Assembly: GCF_032190615.1 (NCBI RefSeq)
Contig: NZ_JAVLAT010000002.1
Location: 858,001 to 922,000 of the forward strand
Origin: Brucella pseudogrignonensis
GTDB taxonomy: Bacteria > Pseudomonadota > Alphaproteobacteria > Rhizobiales > Rhizobiaceae
DNA: 64,000 nt
Direction: 5' to 3'
The position numbers were made by a program, and so were the translations under genes. This document shows, in pieces, positions 41,957 through 50,483 of the stretch. The number at the start of each line of letters is the position of its first letter. Positions within the stretch are counted from its first letter, which is position 1. Under the pieces are notes generated by a model. The model did not search any database, was not told the DNA's origin, and saw only the letters and a list, made by a program, of their open reading frames with translations.

Positions 41957-42715
41957 TTAGAGATAATAGACGGCGATACGATTTCCGCCAACAGTTTCGA
42001 CGGCAATTTCCATTTCGTAGATATCGCGCAGAATATCTGGTTGAATGAGCTGTTCCGGCGTCCCCTGATGCGCCACCTTACCTTTGCGCATGGCAACGAT
42101 ATGGTCGGAATAACAGGAGGCGAAATTGATGTCGTGCAGCACCAGAACTACAGTTTTGCCCAGATCATCCGCTGCACGCCGCAAAAGCTTCATCATCGAC
42201 GCTGAGTGTTTCATGTCGAGATTGTTGAGTGGCTCATCCAAGAGAACATAGTCTGTGTTCTGGCAGAGAACCATCGCCACGAATGCGCGCTGGCGCTGGC
42301 CGCCCGAAAGTTCGTCGAGAAAGCGGTTGCCCAGCTCTGCCAGTTCGAGATAACCGATTGCTTGATCGACGTGAACAAGATCTTCACGGGTTGGACGTCC
42401 CTTGGAATGCGGATAACGTCCGAAAGTTACCAGATCGCGCACTGTGAGGCGCGCGTTAATGGCATTGTCCTGCCTTAGGATTGACAGCCTTTTTGCCAGT
42501 ACGTCGCCGGGTGTGGTCGATACATCCAGCCCATCGATGGTCACGCGGCCTTTACACATGGGAAGAAGGCGGCTGACCATGGAGAGCAGGGTGGATTTTC
42601 CGGCTCCGTTTGGTCCGATAATCGAGGTAATACCGCGTGCGGGCAATCGCAGCGTTACATCATCAACGACGATTGTATCGCGGTAGGATTTACTGACCTG
42701 GCTTATTTCGATCAA
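41957..42715 (-). CDS. Iron-siderophore ABC transporter ATPase (FepC/CeuD type)
   Basis: 252-residue ATPase. Walker A GPNGAGKST, signature [19 protein letters not shown] and Walker B YVLLDEPLNNLDMKHS match the siderophore/cobalamin importer class. It is the last gene of the minus-strand siderophore operon and overlaps the permease gene by ATGA. It drives transport of the ferric siderophore across the inner membrane. Confidence 0.94.
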   Translation of the reverse strand: MIEISQVSKSYRDTIVVDDVTLRLPARGITSIIGPNGAGKSTLLSMVSRLLPMCKGRVTIDGLDVSTTPGDVLAKRLSILRQDNAINARLTVRDLVTFGRYPHSKGRPTREDLVHVDQAIGYLELAELGNRFLDELSGGQRQRAFVAMVLCQNTDYVLLDEPLNNLDMKHSASMMKLLRRAADDLGKTVVLVLHDINFASCYSDHIVAMRKGKVAHQGTPEQLIQPDILRDIYEMEIAVETVGGNRIAVYYL

Positions 42716-43665
42716 CGTGCGTTTCCCCTGACGAGTAGGATGATAAAGACGAGCCCGCCCAGGAACTCGATAATGACACTAAGCGCGGTATTAAACGCGA
42801 AGACACGCTCTAGAATGGTCTGTCCGCCGACGATGCAAAGGATTGCCAGCAATACGGCGATGGGCAGGACGATACGATGTCTGGATGAACCTGTGATCAT
42901 GTAAGCCAGATTGGCAACCAGCAGGCCGAAGAAGGTGATGGGGCCGACAAGGGCTGTGGAAACCGCAACGAGGATTGTGACGATCAGCAGAATGCGGTGC
43001 ACAACGCGACGATGATCGATGCCGAGATTGATGGCTGCATCGCGTCCAAGCGAGAGCACATCGAAGACATTGATAAAACGTAGTCCGTAAAGCGTCACCA
43101 CCGCCACGATAATCGCAGCCAGCAATAGAATGTCGCCATTAACGCTATTGAAATTCGCAAAGAAGCGGTCCTGAAGCACGGCAAATTCATTCGGGTCAAT
43201 CATGCGCTGCATGAGGTTTGATGCACTTCGAAAGAAGACACCGAATACGATGCCGACAAGCATAACCAGATGCAGACTGCGCGCCGCTCCTGAAAACAGC
43301 CATGCATAAAGCGTGCTGGCAAAAACAACCATGATTGCCGTTTCGGCAAAAAAGCGGCCATTGGGGCCGATCCCGTTGACATGGATAGCGCCAAACGCGA
43401 AGACCGCGAATGTCTGAATCAGGATATAAAGCGCATCGAAACCCATGATTGAGGGTGTCAGAATGCGGTTGTTGGTGACTGTTTGAAAGAGAACAGTAGA
43501 GACAGCAATCGAGTAGGCGACGAGTATCATTGCGGCGAGCTTGGTGCCTCGGAAGCTGAGGATGAACGACCAGCTGCCCTTTGCGCCCAGCGTCATGAAG
43601 GCTGCGCAGGAAAGAATGACGAGGATTGAAAGAAGAGTGATGATGAAGCCGGAACGTTTAAGCAA
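42712..43665 (-). CDS. Iron-siderophore ABC permease (second subunit, FecCD family)
   Basis: 317 residues from a TTG at 43665 with GGGGA seven bases before it; the longer reading to 43713 lies inside the preceding gene and starts with a Cys-rich, non-membrane segment. About nine hydrophobic helices are present. Family text includes LGRDAAINLGIDHRRV and GPITFFGLLVANLAYMITG. It overlaps the first permease gene by eight bases and pairs with it, as in FatC/FatD or CeuB/CeuC. Confidence 0.9.
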   Translation of the reverse strand: MLKRSGFIITLLSILVILSCAAFMTLGAKGSWSFILSFRGTKLAAMILVAYSIAVSTVLFQTVTNNRILTPSIMGFDALYILIQTFAVFAFGAIHVNGIGPNGRFFAETAIMVVFASTLYAWLFSGAARSLHLVMLVGIVFGVFFRSASNLMQRMIDPNEFAVLQDRFFANFNSVNGDILLLAAIIVAVVTLYGLRFINVFDVLSLGRDAAINLGIDHRRVVHRILLIVTILVAVSTALVGPITFFGLLVANLAYMITGSSRHRIVLPIAVLLAILCIVGGQTILERVFAFNTALSVIIEFLGGLVFIILLVRGNAR

Positions 43666-44620
43666 GACGTGATCCCCGACGCAACAGCAAGTAGAGGAAG
43701 ATGGCGCTGCCAACGACGCCCATCATCGTACCAATAGGGATCTCATAGGGAAAGCGGATGAGCCGCCCGATAATATCGCAGGCAAGCACCAGTCCCGCGC
43801 CAAGCACGGCAACCCACGGCACAGCACGGCGCATATTATCGCCAATAAACATGCTGACCACATTCGGAACAATCAACCCCAGAAACGGGATCATACCCAC
43901 CGTTACCACGACACTGGCGCTAACCATCGATACGATGATCAACCCCAGCGTTACCACACGGCGATAGTTGAGGCCGAGATTGGTGGTGAAATCTTCGCCC
44001 ATACCAGCCACTGTGAAACGATCAGCCGCAATATAGGCGATGACGGTGAGGGCGAATGAAAGATAAAGCAACTCATAACGACCGCGCAGCACGCCTGAGA
44101 AATCGCCCGTCGTCCACGAATTCAGGGATTGGAGGAGATCAAAGCGATAGGCGATGAAAGTCGTCACTGCGCTGATCACACCACCTAGCATAATGCCGAC
44201 AAGTGGCACCACGAGTACCGAACGTAATGGAATGCTGCGCAGGATGCGCAGAAAAAGGGCTGTACCAGCAAGGGCCGTAACGGAGGCGACCAGCATCTTG
44301 CCGAAAACCGATGTTTCAGGTGCAAACAGGATGACGAGCAGGATGCCGAGGCTTGCAGATTCAACGGTCCCGGCTGTCGAGGGTTCAACAAAACGGTTGC
44401 GGGTCAACATCTGCATGATCATGCCGGCAACGGCCATCGACATGCCTGCAAGAATAATCGCAAGCGTGCGTGGTATGCGGCTGATCAGTAGCACTTCCGT
44501 CGCGCGATCTGTGCTGTTTGCGCCAAACAGCGTGTTAAGCGACACATCGCTGACGCCGATGAAGAGGCTGATGAAGGCCAGGACCAAGACCAAAATTATA
44601 GCTAGGGCGAGTGCCTTCAC
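43658..44620 (-). CDS. Iron-siderophore ABC permease (first subunit, FecCD family)
   Basis: 320 residues from a GTG at 44620 with AGGA seven bases before it. An ATG at 44662 lies within a strong hairpin and would add a charged leader, so it is rejected. Helices 1-9 fit the BtuC/FecCD fold, with family text GAVVSA-like GGVISAVTTFIAY and LGLNYRRVVTLGLI, and GMIPFLGLIVPNVVSMFIG. It works with the 42712-43665 subunit. Confidence 0.9.
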   Translation of the reverse strand: MKALALAIILVLVLAFISLFIGVSDVSLNTLFGANSTDRATEVLLISRIPRTLAIILAGMSMAVAGMIMQMLTRNRFVEPSTAGTVESASLGILLVILFAPETSVFGKMLVASVTALAGTALFLRILRSIPLRSVLVVPLVGIMLGGVISAVTTFIAYRFDLLQSLNSWTTGDFSGVLRGRYELLYLSFALTVIAYIAADRFTVAGMGEDFTTNLGLNYRRVVTLGLIIVSMVSASVVVTVGMIPFLGLIVPNVVSMFIGDNMRRAVPWVAVLGAGLVLACDIIGRLIRFPYEIPIGTMMGVVGSAIFLYLLLRRGSRLA

Positions 44621-44650
44621 GCTAAATTCCTGTTCTCTTGCCTTGTCATG

Positions 44651-44680
44651 AAGTCGGGCCATGACTGCGCGGCCCGACCT
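44651..44680 (-). repeat. Hairpin between siderophore-binding protein and permease genes
   Basis: AAGTCGGGCC (44651-44660) pairs with GGCCCGACCT (44671-44680) with one wobble. There is no T-run. Its position just after the binding-protein stop suggests mRNA protection or dampened permease expression. Confidence 0.7.
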
Positions 44681-44697: not shown

Positions 44698-45627
44698 TTA
44701 CTGGGCCTTGCTAAAGGCATCCGAAAGCTGCTGGATCGTGCTGTGCAGCGCACCAAGCCCGCCGCCGACGAGATACCAGTTCTGGGCGTTCAGATAGACG
44801 ACCTGATCATTTTTCCAGGCATTTGTCTGGCGCACGAGTTCATTATCGAGCAACTGCTTGGCGGACGTGCCTTCACGGCCAATAGCTGCGTCACGATCAA
44901 GTACGAAAAGCCAATCCGGATTGGTTTCAAGCATAAATTCGGAGCTTATGGGCTGCCCATGATTGCCAACAGAAAGATCAGGCGCCGCTGGTTCGATACC
45001 GAAACTGTCATGCAATACGCCGAAACGCGAACCCGGACCATAGGCACTGATCTTGCCGCCTGAGGTCAGGATCATCAGGCCCTTGCCTTTGCCTTTTGTT
45101 CTTTCGTTTAGCGCGGCGAGTTCGCTGTTGAGCTTATCTACTTCAGCTTTGGCTTCCGCTTCCTTGCCAAAAATCTGGCCCAGCTTTTCGATATTGGCTT
45201 CGGTGCCCGAAATGAATTCCTTGGCTGGAACAGTCAGATCGATGGTCGGTGCAATTTTTGCGAGCTCACCATACTTTGCAGCCGAGCGACCACCGACAAT
45301 AATGAGATCCGGTTCTGCTGCATTGACCGCTTCATAGTCTGGCTCAAACAATGTGCCGACTTTTTCGTAATCGGCACCGTCATATTTCTTGAGATATTCC
45401 GGGTAAGCAATGCTGCCGGGCACGCCGATAACTTTCACGCCGAGACGATCAAGATTGTCGAGTGTTGCAAAATCAAACACCACGACTTTCTCTGGATTGA
45501 CCTTAACCGATGTTTCGCCTTGCGCGTGTTTTACCGCGACATCAGCTGCATGTGCGCCAGAAGCAAGTGCCGTCGCAACAAGTGCTGCGCCGAGCAGACG
45601 GGAAAAATGTTGGCCGAATTTCAACAT
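44698..45627 (-). CDS. Siderophore ABC transporter binding protein (FatB/CeuE type)
   Basis: 309 residues from ATG 45627 with AAAGGATTG upstream. The signal peptide MLKFGQHFSRLLGAALVATA ends SGAHAAD. The first lobe has VVVFDFATLDNLDRLGVKVIG and EPDLIIVGGRSAAKYGEL, and the second VGNHGQPISSEFMLETNPDW. These are hallmarks of the catecholate/petrobactin-binding class. It hands ferric siderophore to the FecCD permeases. Confidence 0.92.
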   Translation of the reverse strand: MLKFGQHFSRLLGAALVATALASGAHAADVAVKHAQGETSVKVNPEKVVVFDFATLDNLDRLGVKVIGVPGSIAYPEYLKKYDGADYEKVGTLFEPDYEAVNAAEPDLIIVGGRSAAKYGELAKIAPTIDLTVPAKEFISGTEANIEKLGQIFGKEAEAKAEVDKLNSELAALNERTKGKGKGLMILTSGGKISAYGPGSRFGVLHDSFGIEPAAPDLSVGNHGQPISSEFMLETNPDWLFVLDRDAAIGREGTSAKQLLDNELVRQTNAWKNDQVVYLNAQNWYLVGGGLGALHSTIQQLSDAFSKAQ

Positions 45628-45700
45628 GGCGTTCAATCCTTTCGTCAATCCTGTGTTTTATAGTCCGGTTTTCCGCGAGTGAAAGCAGGAAGATGATAAT

Positions 45701-46597
45701 TCAGTGTTTTTCGGCGCTTGGCTTTTCATCAAGCAGGATAAATCTCAAACTGTCTTCAACAGTCAGTGGTATCATCGATCCGTGGCTTTCCTTCTCGAAG
45801 CGACGATAGGCAACCTCAAATCCCGGGAGTTGTTTCAACTCAGTCTGAATGTCTGCACCCGATGGCCCGCCGCGCAGCTTCTTCAAGCGCTCCATGTCTT
45901 CCTTTGACTGGCCGGGACGTTCGCCGCGCTTTCCAGAGTTTTCAATCAACAAACGGATGGGGCTCGGGTTAGCCTTAAATGCTTCTACGAACTTGTTCTT
46001 GTCAGCGAGAATGGAACGTCCATTCCACCAAATCGATGGGTCGGCAGATGCATAGGTCTGGAAAGAGCCTGTGTGATTAAAGAGCGCATAAAGCGTGAAA
46101 AGGCCACCAAGTGAATGTCCAAACAGGGCCTGTTTGTCCTTGTCGATGATAAAACGCTTTTCAATTTCCGCTTTCACCTGATGATTGATGAAATCGAAGA
46201 AAGCATCACGTCCACCGGTGTTTGGAATATTCGTTTGAATAGGAATGAGTTCATCAGGCGTCGGCGGCGTAAGATCGAAATAGCGCAGGCGGACGATTTC
46301 GTCTTTGTCTTCAGTCGGATAACCAACGCCGACATAAACTGCATTAAGCTTTGGATCTTTCTCCATAAGCTTTGCAGCAATCGGCAGCATGCGATTGCCG
46401 TCCGTCATATAGACGACAGGAAACCCTTCTGCAGGGGCTTTTTCAACAGGAGCTGCCACAAAAATTCGATAATCAATACCGTTCGCTTGCAAGTCAAATG
46501 AACTGACTTGTGGTGTTTGAGCATGCGCGGATGCGCTCACGAGGATGCTTCCGAACATGAGACAGACCTTTAGAATGATATTCTTCATTTTGCTCAT
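45701..46597 (-). CDS. Periplasmic siderophore esterase (IroE/Fes-like alpha/beta hydrolase)
   Basis: 298 residues. The start at 46597 gives MSKMKNIILKVCLMFGSILV, a signal peptide ending SASAHAQ. The esterase D fold is evident from the nucleophile elbow GHSLGG (Ser about 152), with later KESHGSMIPL supplying the probable His. IroE and related enzymes linearise tri-lactone catecholate siderophores in the periplasm. Its place between the TonB receptor and the binding protein supports that role. A hairpin separates it from the receptor gene. Confidence 0.88.
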   Translation of the reverse strand: MSKMKNIILKVCLMFGSILVSASAHAQTPQVSSFDLQANGIDYRIFVAAPVEKAPAEGFPVVYMTDGNRMLPIAAKLMEKDPKLNAVYVGVGYPTEDKDEIVRLRYFDLTPPTPDELIPIQTNIPNTGGRDAFFDFINHQVKAEIEKRFIIDKDKQALFGHSLGGLFTLYALFNHTGSFQTYASADPSIWWNGRSILADKNKFVEAFKANPSPIRLLIENSGKRGERPGQSKEDMERLKKLRGGPSGADIQTELKQLPGFEVAYRRFEKESHGSMIPLTVEDSLRFILLDEKPSAEKH

Positions 46598-46620
46598 GAG
46601 AGCATCCAATTCATAAAAAT

Positions 46621-46656: not shown

Positions 46657-48894
46657 CTAGAAGCGCGATGTCATGCCGAGCCAGAGACGACGGCCTTCGA
46701 CCACGTTGTTGGTTTCATCCACAGTGACCTTCTTGTCGAAGATATTGTAGACAGCCGCATTCAGCGTCACGTTTTCGCTGAATTCATACGAGCCACCGAA
46801 ATCAAGCGTAGCATATCCCTTGTATTTGCGCGCAATGACCTGTCCGCGGCTGTTGTAGGCATAGGGTTCGCCGACTGTGCCGATACGAAGACCGGCATTG
46901 ATTTCTGAACCGTGATAGTTCGCAGCCGTCCAAGCCGTTAAGCCATCTACGGGGGTGTCCCAATCCGCGCGGATGCTACCCATGTGCTTTGGTGTGCGGG
47001 CCAACGGTAGGCCTGCATATTCACCAGTTTTCTGTTCCGAATGGGTGTAAGTATAATTTGCGCGCAGCTTGATCGTGTCGGTCGCTTCCCAGTCAGCCGT
47101 CAATTCGACGCCCTGAATGACAGCTTCGTCAATGTTATAGCTGTAATAAAGGACATAGTTCGGGTCTTGAGCCCAGCGAAGTGGCTGACCAGTGATTGGA
47201 TCGTACTGGATGTTGCTGGCGATCTTATCTTTGAAATCAGTGTAAAAATAAGTTGCGCCGAGACGCAGACCCTGCTGATTGTCCCAGAGTGCACTGGCTT
47301 CATAGCTTGTGCTTTTTTCTGGCTGGAGATTCGGATCGCCAATGATGACGCCGCAGTTTCCAGTTGGGCCATAGGTACAATTGCCGCCGCCGGTGGTATA
47401 AGCATAGCCCGGCGCAATGGTGCGCAGTTCAGGTGCACGGAAACCCGTTGAAATGCCGCCCTTGATAGTCAGCTGATCGGTTGCATGCCAAACGGCATAG
47501 CCTCGTGGGCTCCAATGCGAACCGTAGATTTCATGGTGATCCATACGCAGACCGCCGGTGAGGGCGAAATCTGGTGTGATCCACCATTCATCCTCAGCAA
47601 AGAGCGCCCACTGCTTAATCGTGAACTGTTCGTCTAATCCGGTACGACGGCCAGGGTTCTGATCTGTCAGGGTGCCTTCGATGAATTGGCCGCCCGTTAC
47701 GAGCGTATGGTTGCCATAAAGCTCGAAGGGCGTCGTGAACTTACCATCAAGTGTTGAATTGCGGATGTGCGGTGAACGCAGGTTTTCCACGAACTCGCTG
47801 CGCGCATTATTCCAGCTGAAATTCGTTCTTTCAGCCGTTTCCTGCATGAAGGAGAATTCGGAAGTCGTTGGACCCCAACGGCCAGTATGACTGATAGACC
47901 AATGGTTGCGGTCATTAAGATTGTAAGCATCAACAGGCGCAGTGCTGTTGGTGGAGACTGGATTGATCGTGTTTCCAACCGAAGAGTCACGGCGTAAGCG
48001 TGTCTTGCCTGCTTCAAAGACAATGTCGTGATCCGCATTTGGTGTGATGGTTACACGACCTGTAATGTCGATGTCTTTTTGCTCAGGCGTACCACTGATG
48101 ATCTGGTCTTCCTGACGCTTCATACCACGTCCCCAGAGCTGCACACCAACGAGGTTGGGTACGAGCGGGCCAGTTATGTAATATGAACCCTGATAGGAAT
48201 TACCGTACTTGGAATGCTGCTGGAGTGTCGTGTCGACACTGAGCGAGCCGCTCCACGTGTCTGCAACTTTTTTGGTAATGACGTTGATAACGCCGCCCAT
48301 CGCGTCTGAACCATAAAGCGATGACATTGGACCGCGAATGACTTCAATACGCTCAATAGCATTGGCTGGCGGCAGGAAACTTTGCTCAAAGCCGGAATTG
48401 CCGTTGGTACGCGCATCGCGTGTGCTTTGGCGCTTTCCATCGACGAGTATAAGCGTATAGGTGCCGGGAAGACCGCGAATGAAGATATCACGTTCAGCAG
48501 CGGAACCAGTTACGGCAACGCCTTGCACATCACGCAGTGCATCGCCAAGATCACGATAAGCACGTTTTTCAAGCTCTTCACCTGGAATGACCGAAATGCT
48601 GGCTGGTGCATCAGTGATGTTTTGTTCAAAACCTGTTGCCGATACAACGATCTGATTAAGTGTAATGCCACCCCCAGCATTCACCTGTTCAGCCGCTTGC
48701 GCCTCAGCCTGTTTCTTTTTGGCAGCTTCTTCCTCTGCCTTGGTTAAGGTCTGTGCGAAGGAAACGGTGCCGGTCAAAACAAGTGCAGTGAAAAGACAGG
48801 TGCCCGCAAGAACAGCTTTTGCAAAAAGCGATTTGCTGGCCAAGTGCCTGTTCTGCGAGCCAGTGGCGCGTGATCCCCGAAACAAGCTGGTCAT
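46657..48894 (-). CDS. TonB-dependent outer-membrane siderophore receptor (FepA/CirA type)
   Basis: 745 residues from ATG 48894, with AAGGGTG seven bases before it; the GTG at 48903 lies within that ribosome-binding site. A signal peptide ends VSFAQ. A Glu/Ala/Lys-rich spacer is followed by the TonB box region LNQIVVSATG and the plug (DAPASISVIPGEELEKRAYR, IRGLPGTYTLILVDGKR, RIEVIRGPMSSLYGSDAMGG). The beta-barrel ends in LWLGMTSRF with terminal Phe. It imports a ferric siderophore, probably a catecholate, at the head of the operon. Confidence 0.94.
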   Translation of the reverse strand: MTSLFRGSRATGSQNRHLASKSLFAKAVLAGTCLFTALVLTGTVSFAQTLTKAEEEAAKKKQAEAQAAEQVNAGGGITLNQIVVSATGFEQNITDAPASISVIPGEELEKRAYRDLGDALRDVQGVAVTGSAAERDIFIRGLPGTYTLILVDGKRQSTRDARTNGNSGFEQSFLPPANAIERIEVIRGPMSSLYGSDAMGGVINVITKKVADTWSGSLSVDTTLQQHSKYGNSYQGSYYITGPLVPNLVGVQLWGRGMKRQEDQIISGTPEQKDIDITGRVTITPNADHDIVFEAGKTRLRRDSSVGNTINPVSTNSTAPVDAYNLNDRNHWSISHTGRWGPTTSEFSFMQETAERTNFSWNNARSEFVENLRSPHIRNSTLDGKFTTPFELYGNHTLVTGGQFIEGTLTDQNPGRRTGLDEQFTIKQWALFAEDEWWITPDFALTGGLRMDHHEIYGSHWSPRGYAVWHATDQLTIKGGISTGFRAPELRTIAPGYAYTTGGGNCTYGPTGNCGVIIGDPNLQPEKSTSYEASALWDNQQGLRLGATYFYTDFKDKIASNIQYDPITGQPLRWAQDPNYVLYYSYNIDEAVIQGVELTADWEATDTIKLRANYTYTHSEQKTGEYAGLPLARTPKHMGSIRADWDTPVDGLTAWTAANYHGSEINAGLRIGTVGEPYAYNSRGQVIARKYKGYATLDFGGSYEFSENVTLNAAVYNIFDKKVTVDETNNVVEGRRLWLGMTSRF

Positions 48895-48928
48895 AAATGT
48901 CACCCTTTAAGTTGAGTTTTCGGCTCTC

Positions 48929-48956
48929 CTTATGTATGGCAATAAGATGACGTCAA
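48929..48956 (-). promoter_or_regulatory. Probable promoter of the siderophore operon
   Basis: On the minus strand, TTGACG (48956-48951) and CATAAG (48934-48929) are separated by 16 bases, matching a sigma-70 promoter. The -35 box lies within the spacer of a strong inverted repeat. Confidence 0.5.
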
Positions 48957-48966
48957 CGGTCATCTT
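48944..48966. promoter_or_regulatory. Inverted-repeat operator over the siderophore promoter
   Basis: AAGATGAC (48944-48951) and GTCATCTT (48959-48966) are perfect 8-base arms with a seven-base spacer. The element overlaps the -35 region of the TonB receptor promoter and lies 51 bases before the divergent hybrid regulator gene. It is a good candidate binding site for that regulator or for an iron regulator such as Irr. Confidence 0.55.
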
Positions 48967-49016
48967 TTATAACAATTCCAAGTTTCGAAAAACGCAACTG
49001 ATCGGATAAGACAGCA

Positions 49017-50483
49017 ATGGCTGGCAAGCGCATGAAAACACAGACAGAGCCAGAGGCTGCCGCAGGCGAAAGCCTGAAGTTGGGTGAGCTTCGCTTGTTG
49101 ATTGCGCTTGATGCACTTCTTGTGGAAGGCAGTGTTGGTGGTGCCGCTCGGCAAATGGGCTTGAGCATGGCAGCCATGAGTCGATTGCTTGGACAGATAC
49201 GCGAAAAATTTGACGATCCGATTTTCATCCGTTCAGGCCGCAATATGATCGCAACGCCGAAGGCGGAGGCATTGCGGGGACGACTTCGCAGACTTGCCAA
49301 TGAAACGGAAGCGTTGATGAATTTTGACGGCAAAGATGCTGCTGAAGTGCATTGCGAACGACGGGGATGGGAAAAGACAAGCATGATTGTTGCCCCACCA
49401 CCGCTTGGCATCCGCAAGGTGGTGCAGCTTGAGAACCACCCGACGCCAGAACAGCTTGCTGCGCAATTTGCCAATGTTCAGGATGAAAATGATCCGTCCC
49501 TGCGCTTGGCAAAATATATAGCGATTATTGGCCGTAAGATTGGCTATACGCGTCCGCTTGAAATGCATGAGGCGGAAGACGCCTTCACCACGATTTTTGC
49601 TGGTGAGGCAGACCCTATGCAGATCAGTGCTTTGTTGCGTCTCATCCATTACCGTGGAGAAACTGCGCCGGAGTTAGCCGGGATGGCTCGTGCAGCGCAT
49701 CGCTATTATACGCTTGATGCAAATATAGGGACTTCAGCGCTCGACTGGCCAGCCTATCTGTCGCCCAATTCCAATCAATCGCCCTGGTTTATGTTGGCGG
49801 CCATTCTCGTTTCGCGAGCCGGGTATCCGGTGGTGTTGCACGGCAACTGCGGTATGGGCGAATTGTCAGGAAAGCTTGAACTTGCAGCGCAGGCCGTAAA
49901 TATTCCGATTGCCACGTCGCTGGCGCTTGGAAAAAGTGCTTTGAACGCTCATGGTATTTGCTTCATGCCGCTTGCAGGCTTTGCACCTCAGGTTCATTCT
50001 CTACTGGCGCTCTATCCGTTGTTTAATTCGCGCTCATCGATAAACAGCCTTGCGCATCTGCTAAATCCCTTGAGGCTTTCAGCGTCTTTTGTGGGTGTGA
50101 CACAGCCTGCTTACCGCGAACTGCATCGCGATGCAGGGGCACTTTTGAATATGAAGTCCGTCTCCGCTGTTTCGACAAGCCGCGATGTTGCCGAATTGGT
50201 TCCCCATCATGCGCACACGGTTTATCGATGGCTAGGCTCGCAGAAAATCGACATCAATCTCCCGACCTTATCAAAGGCTGCAACAGACCGCCATGCCAGC
50301 CAAAGCACGTTTGAATATTGGCTCGCAGTTTGGTCTGGTGCGGCTATCGATGAGCGCGCTGAACTCACGGTCATTGCATCAACTGCGATGGCATTGATGA
50401 CTGCTCTTGCTGCCGATAACGATAGTTACGGACATTTCTATGCGCAGGCACAGGCGCTTTGGCAAGCGCGTCATCAACGCTAA
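49017..50483 (+). CDS. Hybrid regulator: LysR-type HTH fused to a TrpD2/anthranilate-PRT-like domain
   Basis: 488 residues. Residues 20-85 form a LysR-type HTH (LDALLVEGSVGGAARQMGLS...IRSGRNMIATPKAEAL). Instead of the usual periplasmic-binding-like effector domain, residues 150-480 resemble glycosyltransferase family 3, as in TrpD and YbiB: a helical N-domain (LAKYIAIIGRKIGYTRPLEMHEAEDAF) and VVLHGNCGMGELSG in place of the TrpD K-H-G-N-R block. The TrpD GTGGD loop is degenerate (ANIGTSALDWPAY), so catalysis is doubtful. It is divergent from the siderophore operon with an inverted repeat between, suggesting control of iron uptake by a sugar-phosphate or nucleotide ligand. Function inferred. 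Confidence 0.85.
   Translation: MAGKRMKTQTEPEAAAGESLKLGELRLLIALDALLVEGSVGGAARQMGLSMAAMSRLLGQIREKFDDPIFIRSGRNMIATPKAEALRGRLRRLANETEALMNFDGKDAAEVHCERRGWEKTSMIVAPPPLGIRKVVQLENHPTPEQLAAQFANVQDENDPSLRLAKYIAIIGRKIGYTRPLEMHEAEDAFTTIFAGEADPMQISALLRLIHYRGETAPELAGMARAAHRYYTLDANIGTSALDWPAYLSPNSNQSPWFMLAAILVSRAGYPVVLHGNCGMGELSGKLELAAQAVNIPIATSLALGKSALNAHGICFMPLAGFAPQVHSLLALYPLFNSRSSINSLAHLLNPLRLSASFVGVTQPAYRELHRDAGALLNMKSVSAVSTSRDVAELVPHHAHTVYRWLGSQKIDINLPTLSKAATDRHASQSTFEYWLAVWSGAAIDERAELTVIASTAMALMTALAADNDSYGHFYAQAQALWQARHQR

What the first reader, a model, noticed from the sequence alone, without database searches (positions are those of the whole stretch)
49017..50483. LysR DNA-binding head joined to a TrpD2-like body
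LysR regulators normally carry a two-lobe effector-binding domain. Here the head is followed by a glycosyltransferase-3 / anthranilate-PRT-like region with degraded PRPP and catalytic loops. That suggests a regulator sensing a phosphorylated sugar, nucleotide or nucleic acid. TrpD2-type YbiB of E. coli binds DNA, so two DNA-binding surfaces in one chain are possible. Its position, divergent from a siderophore operon, gives it an obvious target.
Basis: partly seen in the sequence, partly recalled or inferred. Interest (0 to 1): 0.75.

Follow-up and report, generated by a model that had tools for sequence, protein, structure and literature searches.

The report
Enzyme-derived sensor regulating siderophore uptake
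A bacterial gene switch made of an ordinary LysR-type DNA-binding head and a dead relative of a tryptophan-synthesis enzyme sits beside iron-scavenging (siderophore uptake) genes in many Alphaproteobacteria, usually with the same DNA element in front of those genes, which makes it a likely and, as far as I could search, undescribed kind of siderophore-uptake regulator.

Summary
Residues 25-84 are a LysR helix-turn-helix; residues 153-488 are an anthranilate-PRT-like body (NCBIfam NF006564), nearest by profile to YbiB/TrpD2. No ordinary LysR effector domain was found and the PRPP motif is gone. The 49 fusions placed in a tree form one clade. Of 39 fetched orthologous loci, 38 have a TonB receptor divergent from the gene and the 39th the siderophore-binding protein. 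In the window the receptor is CirA-like, with an enterobactin-esterase-like gene and an iron-siderophore ABC transporter. The intergenic DNA carries an 88-bp composite element, ending in a T-N11-A LysR-type box, in 40 of 41 fusion loci (leave-group-out scores 33-81); nine related receptors without the fusion score at most 3. In four loci a receptor not facing the regulator has its own copy. Five of 11 named loci lack a strong copy. So this is very probably a local regulator of catecholate-siderophore uptake, layered on general iron control; activation is likelier than repression. The ligand is unknown.

The parts
49017..50483 (+). regulator gene, LysR HTH + NF006564 (TrpD2-like) body, 488 aa
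49089..49268 (+). LysR-type winged HTH (residues 25-84)
49473..50480 (+). TrpD2-like body (residues 153-488), PRPP motif lost
46657..48903 (-). TonB-dependent receptor, CirA-like (ORF from GTG 48903; a likelier start is ATG 48894 behind a purine-rich ribosome site, by eye)
45701..46609 (-). siderophore esterase: best solved matches 'BES', ferric enterobactin esterase, IroE; signal peptide by eye, so probably periplasmic
44698..45648 (-). siderophore ABC substrate-binding protein, nearest NCBIfam model SstD (below cut-off)
43658..44662 (-). iron-siderophore ABC permease 1 (NCBIfam permease models, all below cut-off)
42712..43713 (-). iron-siderophore ABC permease 2 (same blast cluster as permease 1)
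41957..42715 (-). ABC ATPase (67% over 226 aa to the gene annotated ATP-binding cassette protein in the Shinella locus)
48910..48997 (.). 88-bp composite element, score 86.9 (window is in the matrix; 66.5 with its group left out); next best in the window -7.1
48983..48997 (+). TT-N11-AA box (T-N11-A, LysR type), right half CGCAA
48966..48982 (+). dyad resembling the Irr box TTTAGAA-N3-TTCTAAA (consensus recalled), 3 mismatches here, 0-3 in 29 of 40 rows
48951..48956 (-). inferred receptor -35 (TTGACG)
   Evidence: by eye; a like site in three receptors without the fusion
48929..48934 (-). inferred receptor -10 (CATAAG), 16-nt spacer
   Evidence: by eye
48910..48920 (+). AGTTGAGTTTT, inverted partner of AGTTGCGTTTT at 48989-48999 (-), in the inferred receptor leader

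Best explanation
It is a one-component transcription regulator. The LysR head binds the T-N11-A box at 48983-48997, about 68 bp upstream of the inferred receptor transcription start (a usual place for a LysR activator site, recalled) and 19 bp before its own start codon, so it probably activates the divergent catecholate-siderophore receptor operon and limits its own expression. The TrpD2-like body replaces the usual LysR effector domain: it should dimerise the protein and hold a signal molecule in the former anthranilate/PRPP cleft, most likely something delivered by the siderophore the operon takes up. General iron control is separate, probably through the Irr-like dyad next to the box. Shown by computation: domain make-up, loss of the PRPP motif, linkage to siderophore uptake genes, and an element that goes with regulator and receptor. 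Inferred: DNA binding at that box, promoter positions, activation rather than repression, dimerisation, and the ligand. The confidence given is for local regulation of the uptake genes through this element with the body as sensor; activation over repression I put at about two to one.
For: Domains. Siderophore gene divergent in 39 of 39 fetched loci: receptor 38, binding protein 1. Element leave-group-out scores 33.3-80.9 in 40 of 41 loci; 9 receptor loci without the fusion reach 3.0 at most; Markov null (200 sequences) -7.5 at most; 1.63 million positions of other fetched DNA 3.9 at most. T-N11-A in 38 and GCAA in 37 of the 40 copies. Receptors not facing the regulator have their own copy: L061 26.2 and L132 22.4 with those loci left out of the matrix, L192 33.7 and L189 36.6, never in the matrix. 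Named loci not used for the matrix: Shinella 78.0, Pararhizobium 68.8, Pannonibacter 50.7 (its site differs in 1 base from L132, which is in the matrix), Neorhizobium 39.6, Cereibacter 34.2. Receptor, esterase and binding-protein identity. PRPP motif lost in 104 of 104; pocket Arg changed in 49 of 49.
Against: No binding, expression or ligand data. Five of the 11 named loci have no strong element: Sulfitobacter -14.7, A. lipoferum -17.5, A. ramasamyi -8.9, A. brasilense 6.3, Rhizobium ACO-34A -2.1; the last four have their best hit just before the place of the downstream receptor, but by score that is not distinguishable from background. The motif seed was written by eye from the same loci, so the 40 scores are not wholly independent. 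The element includes the receptor core promoter and an Irr-like dyad, so part of its conservation is not the regulator's; two of five aligned controls have T and A at the right spacing by position, though none has GCAA. Of the four detached copies, L061 lacks the T of T-N11-A and L189 the GCAA, and in L189 the first half of the regulator's HTH is missing. Synteny counts share ancestry. Nine of 37 family genomes with a close receptor lack the fusion, so it is not essential for the receptor.
Confidence: 0.7

Rival explanations
1. Same regulator, but a repressor: it binds both TTGMG half-sites (48910-48920 and 48989-48999) and loops or blocks the receptor promoter until a ligand releases it.
For: The half-site at 48910 lies just downstream of the inferred -10 in the receptor leader and is conserved with the fusion; the pair is inverted, and 2 of only 8 genome copies of AGTTGMGTTTT lie here (reversed-pattern control 6). 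A local regulator divergent from a siderophore receptor can repress: vctA, divergent from iurV, rose 409-fold in the iurV mutant of V. cholerae (PMC7600106, passage).
Against: The box about 68 bp upstream fits an activator; the 48910-type half-site is weak in the detached-receptor copies; in the same paper IrgB is called an activator of irgA.
Confidence: 0.3
2. The body reads the siroheme/sulfur or internal iron state, as its relatives without an HTH may do, rather than a siderophore product.
For: Other NF006564 genes lie next to CysG/CobA, Tus/DsrC, Dsr or a NasC-like gene in 32 of 60 loci (families named).
Against: Residues that mark the standalones are changed in the fusions: Arg/Lys (47 of 48) to Tyr/His (48 of 49) or Ser (1), GG to RD. 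The Dsr and CobA clusters (c14-c16, c23-c26, c32) appear in no fusion row there; the fusion neighbours were not all annotated, and Shinella has a cobinamide amidohydrolase next to the regulator.
Confidence: 0.2
3. The conserved element belongs wholly to Irr/RirA and the receptor promoter; the fusion is only a linked passenger acting elsewhere.
For: Irr-like dyad with at most 3 mismatches in 29 of 40 rows and TGA-N9-TCA in 15 of 16 close loci; dyad and -35 recur in receptors without the fusion, L166-L168.
Against: The full element is missing at all 9 receptors without the fusion and the GCAA end at the five that align at all, yet the element is present at detached receptors in loci with the fusion.
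Confidence: 0.1
4. The body is a YbiB-like nucleic-acid binder, giving two DNA-binding faces in one chain.
For: YbiB is the best solved-structure match of the fusion profile (E 5.1e-16) and of a standalone relative (E 6.5e-21).
Against: The window protein alone matches TrpD chains better (E 7e-11) than YbiB (E 1.7e-9). YbiB Arg92 aligns to residue 251: Asn here, Lys/Arg in 64 of 104; body net charge +1 here, median +3.
Confidence: 0.07

Closest known systems
Vibrio cholerae IrgB / irgA
   Same: Regulator tied to an enterobactin receptor; IrgB is called an activator of irgA expression (PMC7600106, passage). That IrgB is a LysR protein encoded divergently from irgA, and that the window's receptor resembles IrgA as well as CirA, is recalled.
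   Different: IrgB has, as recalled, an ordinary LysR effector domain; here a TrpD2-like body stands in its place. No sequence comparison with IrgB was made.
YbiB / TrpD2 family
   Same: Nearest solved-structure relative of the body by profile; both lack the PRPP motif (PMC9835598, passage).
   Different: YbiB lies in a LexA-regulated operon with dinG and binds nucleic acid in a seemingly sequence-independent way through basic grooves (PMC10123104, passages); its Arg92 is not kept here.
NCBIfam NF006564 / PRK09071 proteins without HTH
   Same: Same family as the body, 407 bits against a cut-off of 257.
   Different: Siroheme/Tus/Dsr/nitrate-type contexts in 32 of 60 loci; Arg and GG where fusions have Tyr and RD. 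I found no described function, but made no search devoted to it beyond.
ModE (HTH_1 plus another sensor domain; recalled, no call)
   Same: LysR-type HTH joined to a non-LysR sensor domain.
   Different: Molybdate-binding domain, unrelated target.

Membership tests
LysR-type transcription regulators | N-terminal LysR winged HTH | tested here: met
   HTH_1 45.3 bits, cut-off 26.6
LysR-type transcription regulators | LysR substrate-binding effector domain | tested here: not met
   no such Pfam match at E <= 1; no LysR model in NCBIfam reaches its cut-off
LysR-type transcription regulators | T-N11-A box near the divergent target | tested here: met
   TT-N11-AA at 48983-48997; T-N11-A in 38 of 40 element copies. 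That the protein binds it was not tested
Anthranilate phosphoribosyltransferase (TrpD) | GTGGD PRPP loop | tested here: not met
   D-W-P in 104 of 104 fusions near the aligned place
Anthranilate phosphoribosyltransferase (TrpD) | curated equivalog score | tested here: not met
   67 bits against 199; a gene with intact GTGGD and KHGN lies at G000 C1:218872
TrpD2 / YbiB | AnPRT-like sequence without the PRPP motif | tested here: met
TrpD2 / YbiB | YbiB equivalog score | tested here: not met
   70 bits against 185
TrpD2 / YbiB | basic groove with Arg92 and Arg123 | tested here: inconclusive
   251 is Asn here (Lys/Arg in 64 of 104); near the Arg123 place residue 284 is Ser and 286 is Lys, alignment uncertain by two
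TrpD2 / YbiB | AnPRT fold and homodimer | not testable with these tools
   structure prediction switched off
NF006564 / PRK09071 | curated score cut-off | tested here: met
   407 bits, cut-off 257
IrgB-like receptor activators | regulator divergent from a CirA-type receptor | tested here: met
IrgB-like receptor activators | activates the receptor | not testable with these tools
   needs expression data

The most novel reading that the evidence does not exclude
A tryptophan-pathway fold was turned into a siderophore sensor: the old anthranilate cleft, with its carboxylate-binding Arg replaced by Tyr or His, now recognises a catechol acid or fragment (for example 2,3-dihydroxybenzoate, itself anthranilate-like) freed from the incoming siderophore, and switches the LysR head on the receptor promoter, so cells make the receptor only when iron is short and the siderophore is really there.
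Probability: 0.25. Interest if true: 0.8.

Novelty: new variant of a known kind. Interest (0 to 1): 0.62.

Why it matters
Local siderophore regulators decide which foreign siderophores a bacterium exploits. Here is an alphaproteobacterial one found in several orders, annotated as 'glycosyl transferase' or 'anthranilate phosphoribosyltransferase', with a sensor fold that I did not find described for the LysR group in the papers searched, and with a predicted operator in hand. It makes the ligand question directly testable and gives a functional lead on the NF006564 family.

Tried and rejected
A whole-genome scan with the 88-column matrix was not possible; the short pattern AGTTGMGTTTT gave 8 hits in the genome against 6 for its reversed control, so it shows no enrichment and named no further target. 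Rejected: active TrpD enzyme (PRPP loop gone); ordinary LysR effector domain; chance or assembly fusion; regulator of the right-hand neighbours (these differ between lineages). The dsrN/dsrP paper search matched dsRNA and is worthless. Rodionov et al. 2006 (PMC1698941) is not held. The Irr and RirA consensus letters are recalled; passages speak of such boxes but print no letters, and one search found none.

Rows left out: alignment A1 used 103 of the 120 listed homologues plus the window protein. The motif set left out L046, the same protein as L040; L100 was searched but kept out of the final matrix because its regulator lacks the N-terminus. The trees took 48 standalones passing a length filter with 28 fusions of the window's family, then with 21 more fusions, 14 from loci and 7 of the listed proteins. 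Of the 42 plasmid records with a fusion I opened 11, chosen across genera; none of the 20 Agrobacterium records was opened. The 60 standalone-context loci are the best-scoring ones (at most 30 loci a search), seen with 1.5 kb on either side; whether each lacks an HTH was not checked one by one.

It changed 'every fusion' to 48 of 49 for Tyr/His, brought out the T and A in two controls, the near identity of the Pannonibacter and L132 sites and the damaged HTH in L189, and widened the tree. 

Full report
The observation. The 488-aa ORF at 49017-50483 carries a LysR-type HTH (residues 25-84) and, from residue 153, a body that meets the curated cut-off of NCBIfam NF006564/PRK09071 (407 bits, cut-off 257) but not those of YbiB or TrpD. 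No LysR substrate-binding domain is listed at E <= 1. Against solved structures the profile of 104 fusions matches YbiB best (E 5.1e-16), then anthranilate phosphoribosyltransferases, and separately LysR heads; the window protein on its own matches TrpD chains (E 7e-11) before YbiB (E 1.7e-9). So 'LysR head joined to a TrpD2-like body' is correct.

The fusion is real and old. A search of 5.8 billion proteins gave 230 relatives; 115 of the 120 listed carry both HTH_1 and Glycos_trans_3N, down to 41% identity. Sources call them 'glycosyl transferase family protein' or 'anthranilate phosphoribosyltransferase'; nearly all named organisms are Alphaproteobacteria, with single records labelled Paraburkholderia and Mycolicibacterium. 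In the window's family, 297 genomes were searched: 29 listed places outside the window span head and body (one of them only from residue 54), one further locus (G078) is split in two pieces, and five genomes hold a body of about 340 aa alone (capped list). In the genus 33 of 35 genomes have a match, one of them (G1148) only to the body; the two without are G1154 (3.3 Mb, 99% complete) and G1164 (72% complete). In a thin sample of the rest of the order fusions are rare: one of 249 genomes besides the window's own, and 2 of 87 in that genome's family. Plasmid records add Azospirillum, Cereibacter, Sulfitobacter and Pannonibacter. Bodies of 28 fusions of the family form one clade against 48 standalones (support 0.986), and so do 49 fusions when 21 from other genera and families are added (support 0.889, no standalone inside). 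The join probably happened once.

The body is a changed enzyme. The GTGGD PRPP loop is replaced, with D-W-P nearby, in 104 of 104 fusions, while the His-Gly of the KHGN motif is kept in 104 of 104. One column holds Arg in the genome's own TrpD; by my reading it is Arg193 of M. tuberculosis TrpD, shown to matter for anthranilate binding (PMC9835598, passage). It is Arg or Lys in 47 of 48 standalones and Tyr (42), His (6) or Ser (1) in 49 fusions (Tyr 100, His 4 of 104). The standalone GG motif becomes Arg-Asp. The cleft was remodelled with the fusion, as expected of a new ligand. The YbiB-like DNA-binding face is doubtful here: the residue aligned to Arg92 is Asn251, and the body's net charge is +1.

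The target. In the window the gene diverges from a CirA-like receptor (best solved match the colicin I receptor, E 1.3e-101; best NCBIfam models PRK13483 and PRK13513, CirA fifth, all below cut-off). It is followed by an esterase whose best solved matches are 'BES', a ferric enterobactin esterase and IroE, a binding protein whose best model is the catecholamine-binding SstD (below cut-off), two permeases and an ATPase. Among 39 fetched orthologous loci (one duplicate pair, L040/L046), 38 have a TonB receptor divergent from the regulator and the 39th, L061, the siderophore-binding protein. No match to the binding protein lies in the stretch held for L051-L055, L057, L058, L100 and L107, so regulator plus receptor is the core. 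In L062 and L094 the divergent receptor is only 33% identical to the window's. Three later loci agree: L173 receptor, L132 and L183 binding protein. Of 11 named plasmid loci (of 42 records), three have a divergent receptor, three a divergent binding protein, one (L189) a permease gene running up against a regulator whose HTH lacks its first half, and three a receptor directly downstream (two of these also with the siderophore ABC operon beyond a small gene); the eleventh (A. brasilense Sp7) has no annotation, only an ABC ATPase match at the far end of the stretch. The converse does not hold: 37 of 297 family genomes have a receptor at E <= 1e-120, and nine of these (G026, G126, G282, G072, G040, G158, G079, G124, G159) show no fusion; in G158 the receptor lies at a contig end.

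The DNA element. The 113-bp intergenic region is strongly conserved among 16 close loci, and a composite element of 88 columns persists to about 40% protein identity. Read from the receptor side, with promoter parts assigned by eye: TTGAG half-site in the receptor leader, -10, -35 (TTGACC/G), an Irr-box-like dyad, then TT-N11-AA, a T-N11-A LysR-type box. Leave-group-out scores are 33.3-80.9 in 40 of 41 loci; the exception L100 lacks the regulator's N-terminus and half the element. The seed was written by eye from these loci, so the named loci below are the cleaner test. T-N11-A holds in 38 and GCAA in 37 of the 40 copies. Controls: nine receptors without the fusion score 3.0 or less, 200 Markov sequences -7.5 or less, and 1.63 million positions of other fetched DNA 3.9 or less. 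Three of the nine controls (L166-L168) keep the -35 and an Irr-like dyad. None of the five controls that align at all has the GCAA end, though two (L167, L168) have T and A at the right spacing. This points to general iron control in one part and a part that follows the fusion.

Detached receptors and named loci. In L061 and L132, where the regulator faces the binding protein, the receptor elsewhere in the locus (28% identical) has its own copy 14 and 0 bp before its first in-frame start, scores 26.2 and 22.4 with those loci excluded from the matrix. In Neorhizobium L192 fepA, and in Rhizobium L189 a convergent receptor, have copies scoring 33.7 and 36.6; L061 lacks the T of T-N11-A and L189 the GCAA. 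Next to the regulator, Shinella scores 78.0, Pararhizobium 68.8, Pannonibacter 50.7 (one base from L132), Neorhizobium 39.6 and Cereibacter 34.2. Against: Sulfitobacter has no copy (-14.7), and three Azospirillum loci and Rhizobium ACO-34A score -17.5 to 6.3; their best hits all lie just before the downstream receptor's place, but by score they are background.

How it probably works. The T-N11-A box is centred about 68 bp upstream of the inferred receptor start (set from the -10, not measured) and ends 19 bp before the regulator's own start, which fits a LysR activator with autoregulation. The nearest known logic is V. cholerae IrgB, an activator of the IrgA enterobactin receptor; the same paper shows the opposite sign for IurV, whose loss raises the divergent vctA 409-fold (PMC7600106, passages), so repression stays open. 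The likely scheme has two keys: iron shortage through Irr/RirA-type control, and presence of the siderophore through the TrpD2-like body. The ligand is not known. Other NF006564 genes lie beside CysG/CobA (15), Tus/DsrC (13), Dsr (7) or a NasC-like gene fragment (5), 32 of 60 loci in all (classes overlap; one or a few representatives of each named, the NasC-like one below cut-off), and YaaA in 4 and GlcD-like genes in 3; 21 loci fall in none of these. A siroheme or sulfur signal is therefore a fair rival.

Novelty. Searches for LysR with TrpD or glycosyl-transferase and siderophore terms and for TrpD2/YbiB listed no paper on this fusion; only open-licence PubMed Central papers were searched. 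I saw passages, not whole texts, of PMC5445326, PMC10123104, PMC3413700, PMC10374146, PMC12815270, PMC7600106 and PMC9835598. LysR heads on other sensor domains are known (ModE, recalled), so this is a new variant of a known kind.

Noticed in passing
L063, L066, L108, L110, L121, L129-L131, L136-L149, L151, L152, L160: NF006564 genes outside the fusion lie in tusDCBE, dsrMKLJOP-dsrN-like and nasC-like/cysG neighbourhoods; the family looks tied to siroheme enzymes and sulfur relay.
   Followed up: partly
L100 and L189: Regulators damaged at the N-terminus: L100 has lost it together with half of the promoter element, L189 lacks the first half of the HTH next to a permease gene; both loci keep a receptor gene.
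   Followed up: partly
L107 and L058: Decaying copies: in L107 the regulator is split in two ORFs and the receptor has 7 in-frame stops; in L058 the receptor is split in two pieces.
   Followed up: no
genus search, G1154, G1164, G1148: Two genomes of the genus (3.3 Mb, 99% complete; 3.1 Mb, 72% complete) show no match to the regulator; G1148 matches only to the body.
   Followed up: no
window 48894-48908: The receptor ORF's GTG start (48903) overlaps a purine-rich ribosome site; ATG 48894 is the likelier start.
   Followed up: no
L186, L187, L194: Azospirillum and Rhizobium ACO-34A carry a receptor, Fe2+-dependent dioxygenase, TPR or hypothetical gene and alpha-hydroxy-acid oxidase module just downstream of the regulator.
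   Followed up: no
L192 5899-7950: In Neorhizobium the regulator ORF runs on to about 700 aa, with a C-terminal extension not seen in the others looked at.
   Followed up: no
window 48948-48962: TGA-N9-TCA, resembling a RirA operator (consensus recalled), in 15 of 16 close loci; it overlaps the inferred -35.
   Followed up: partly
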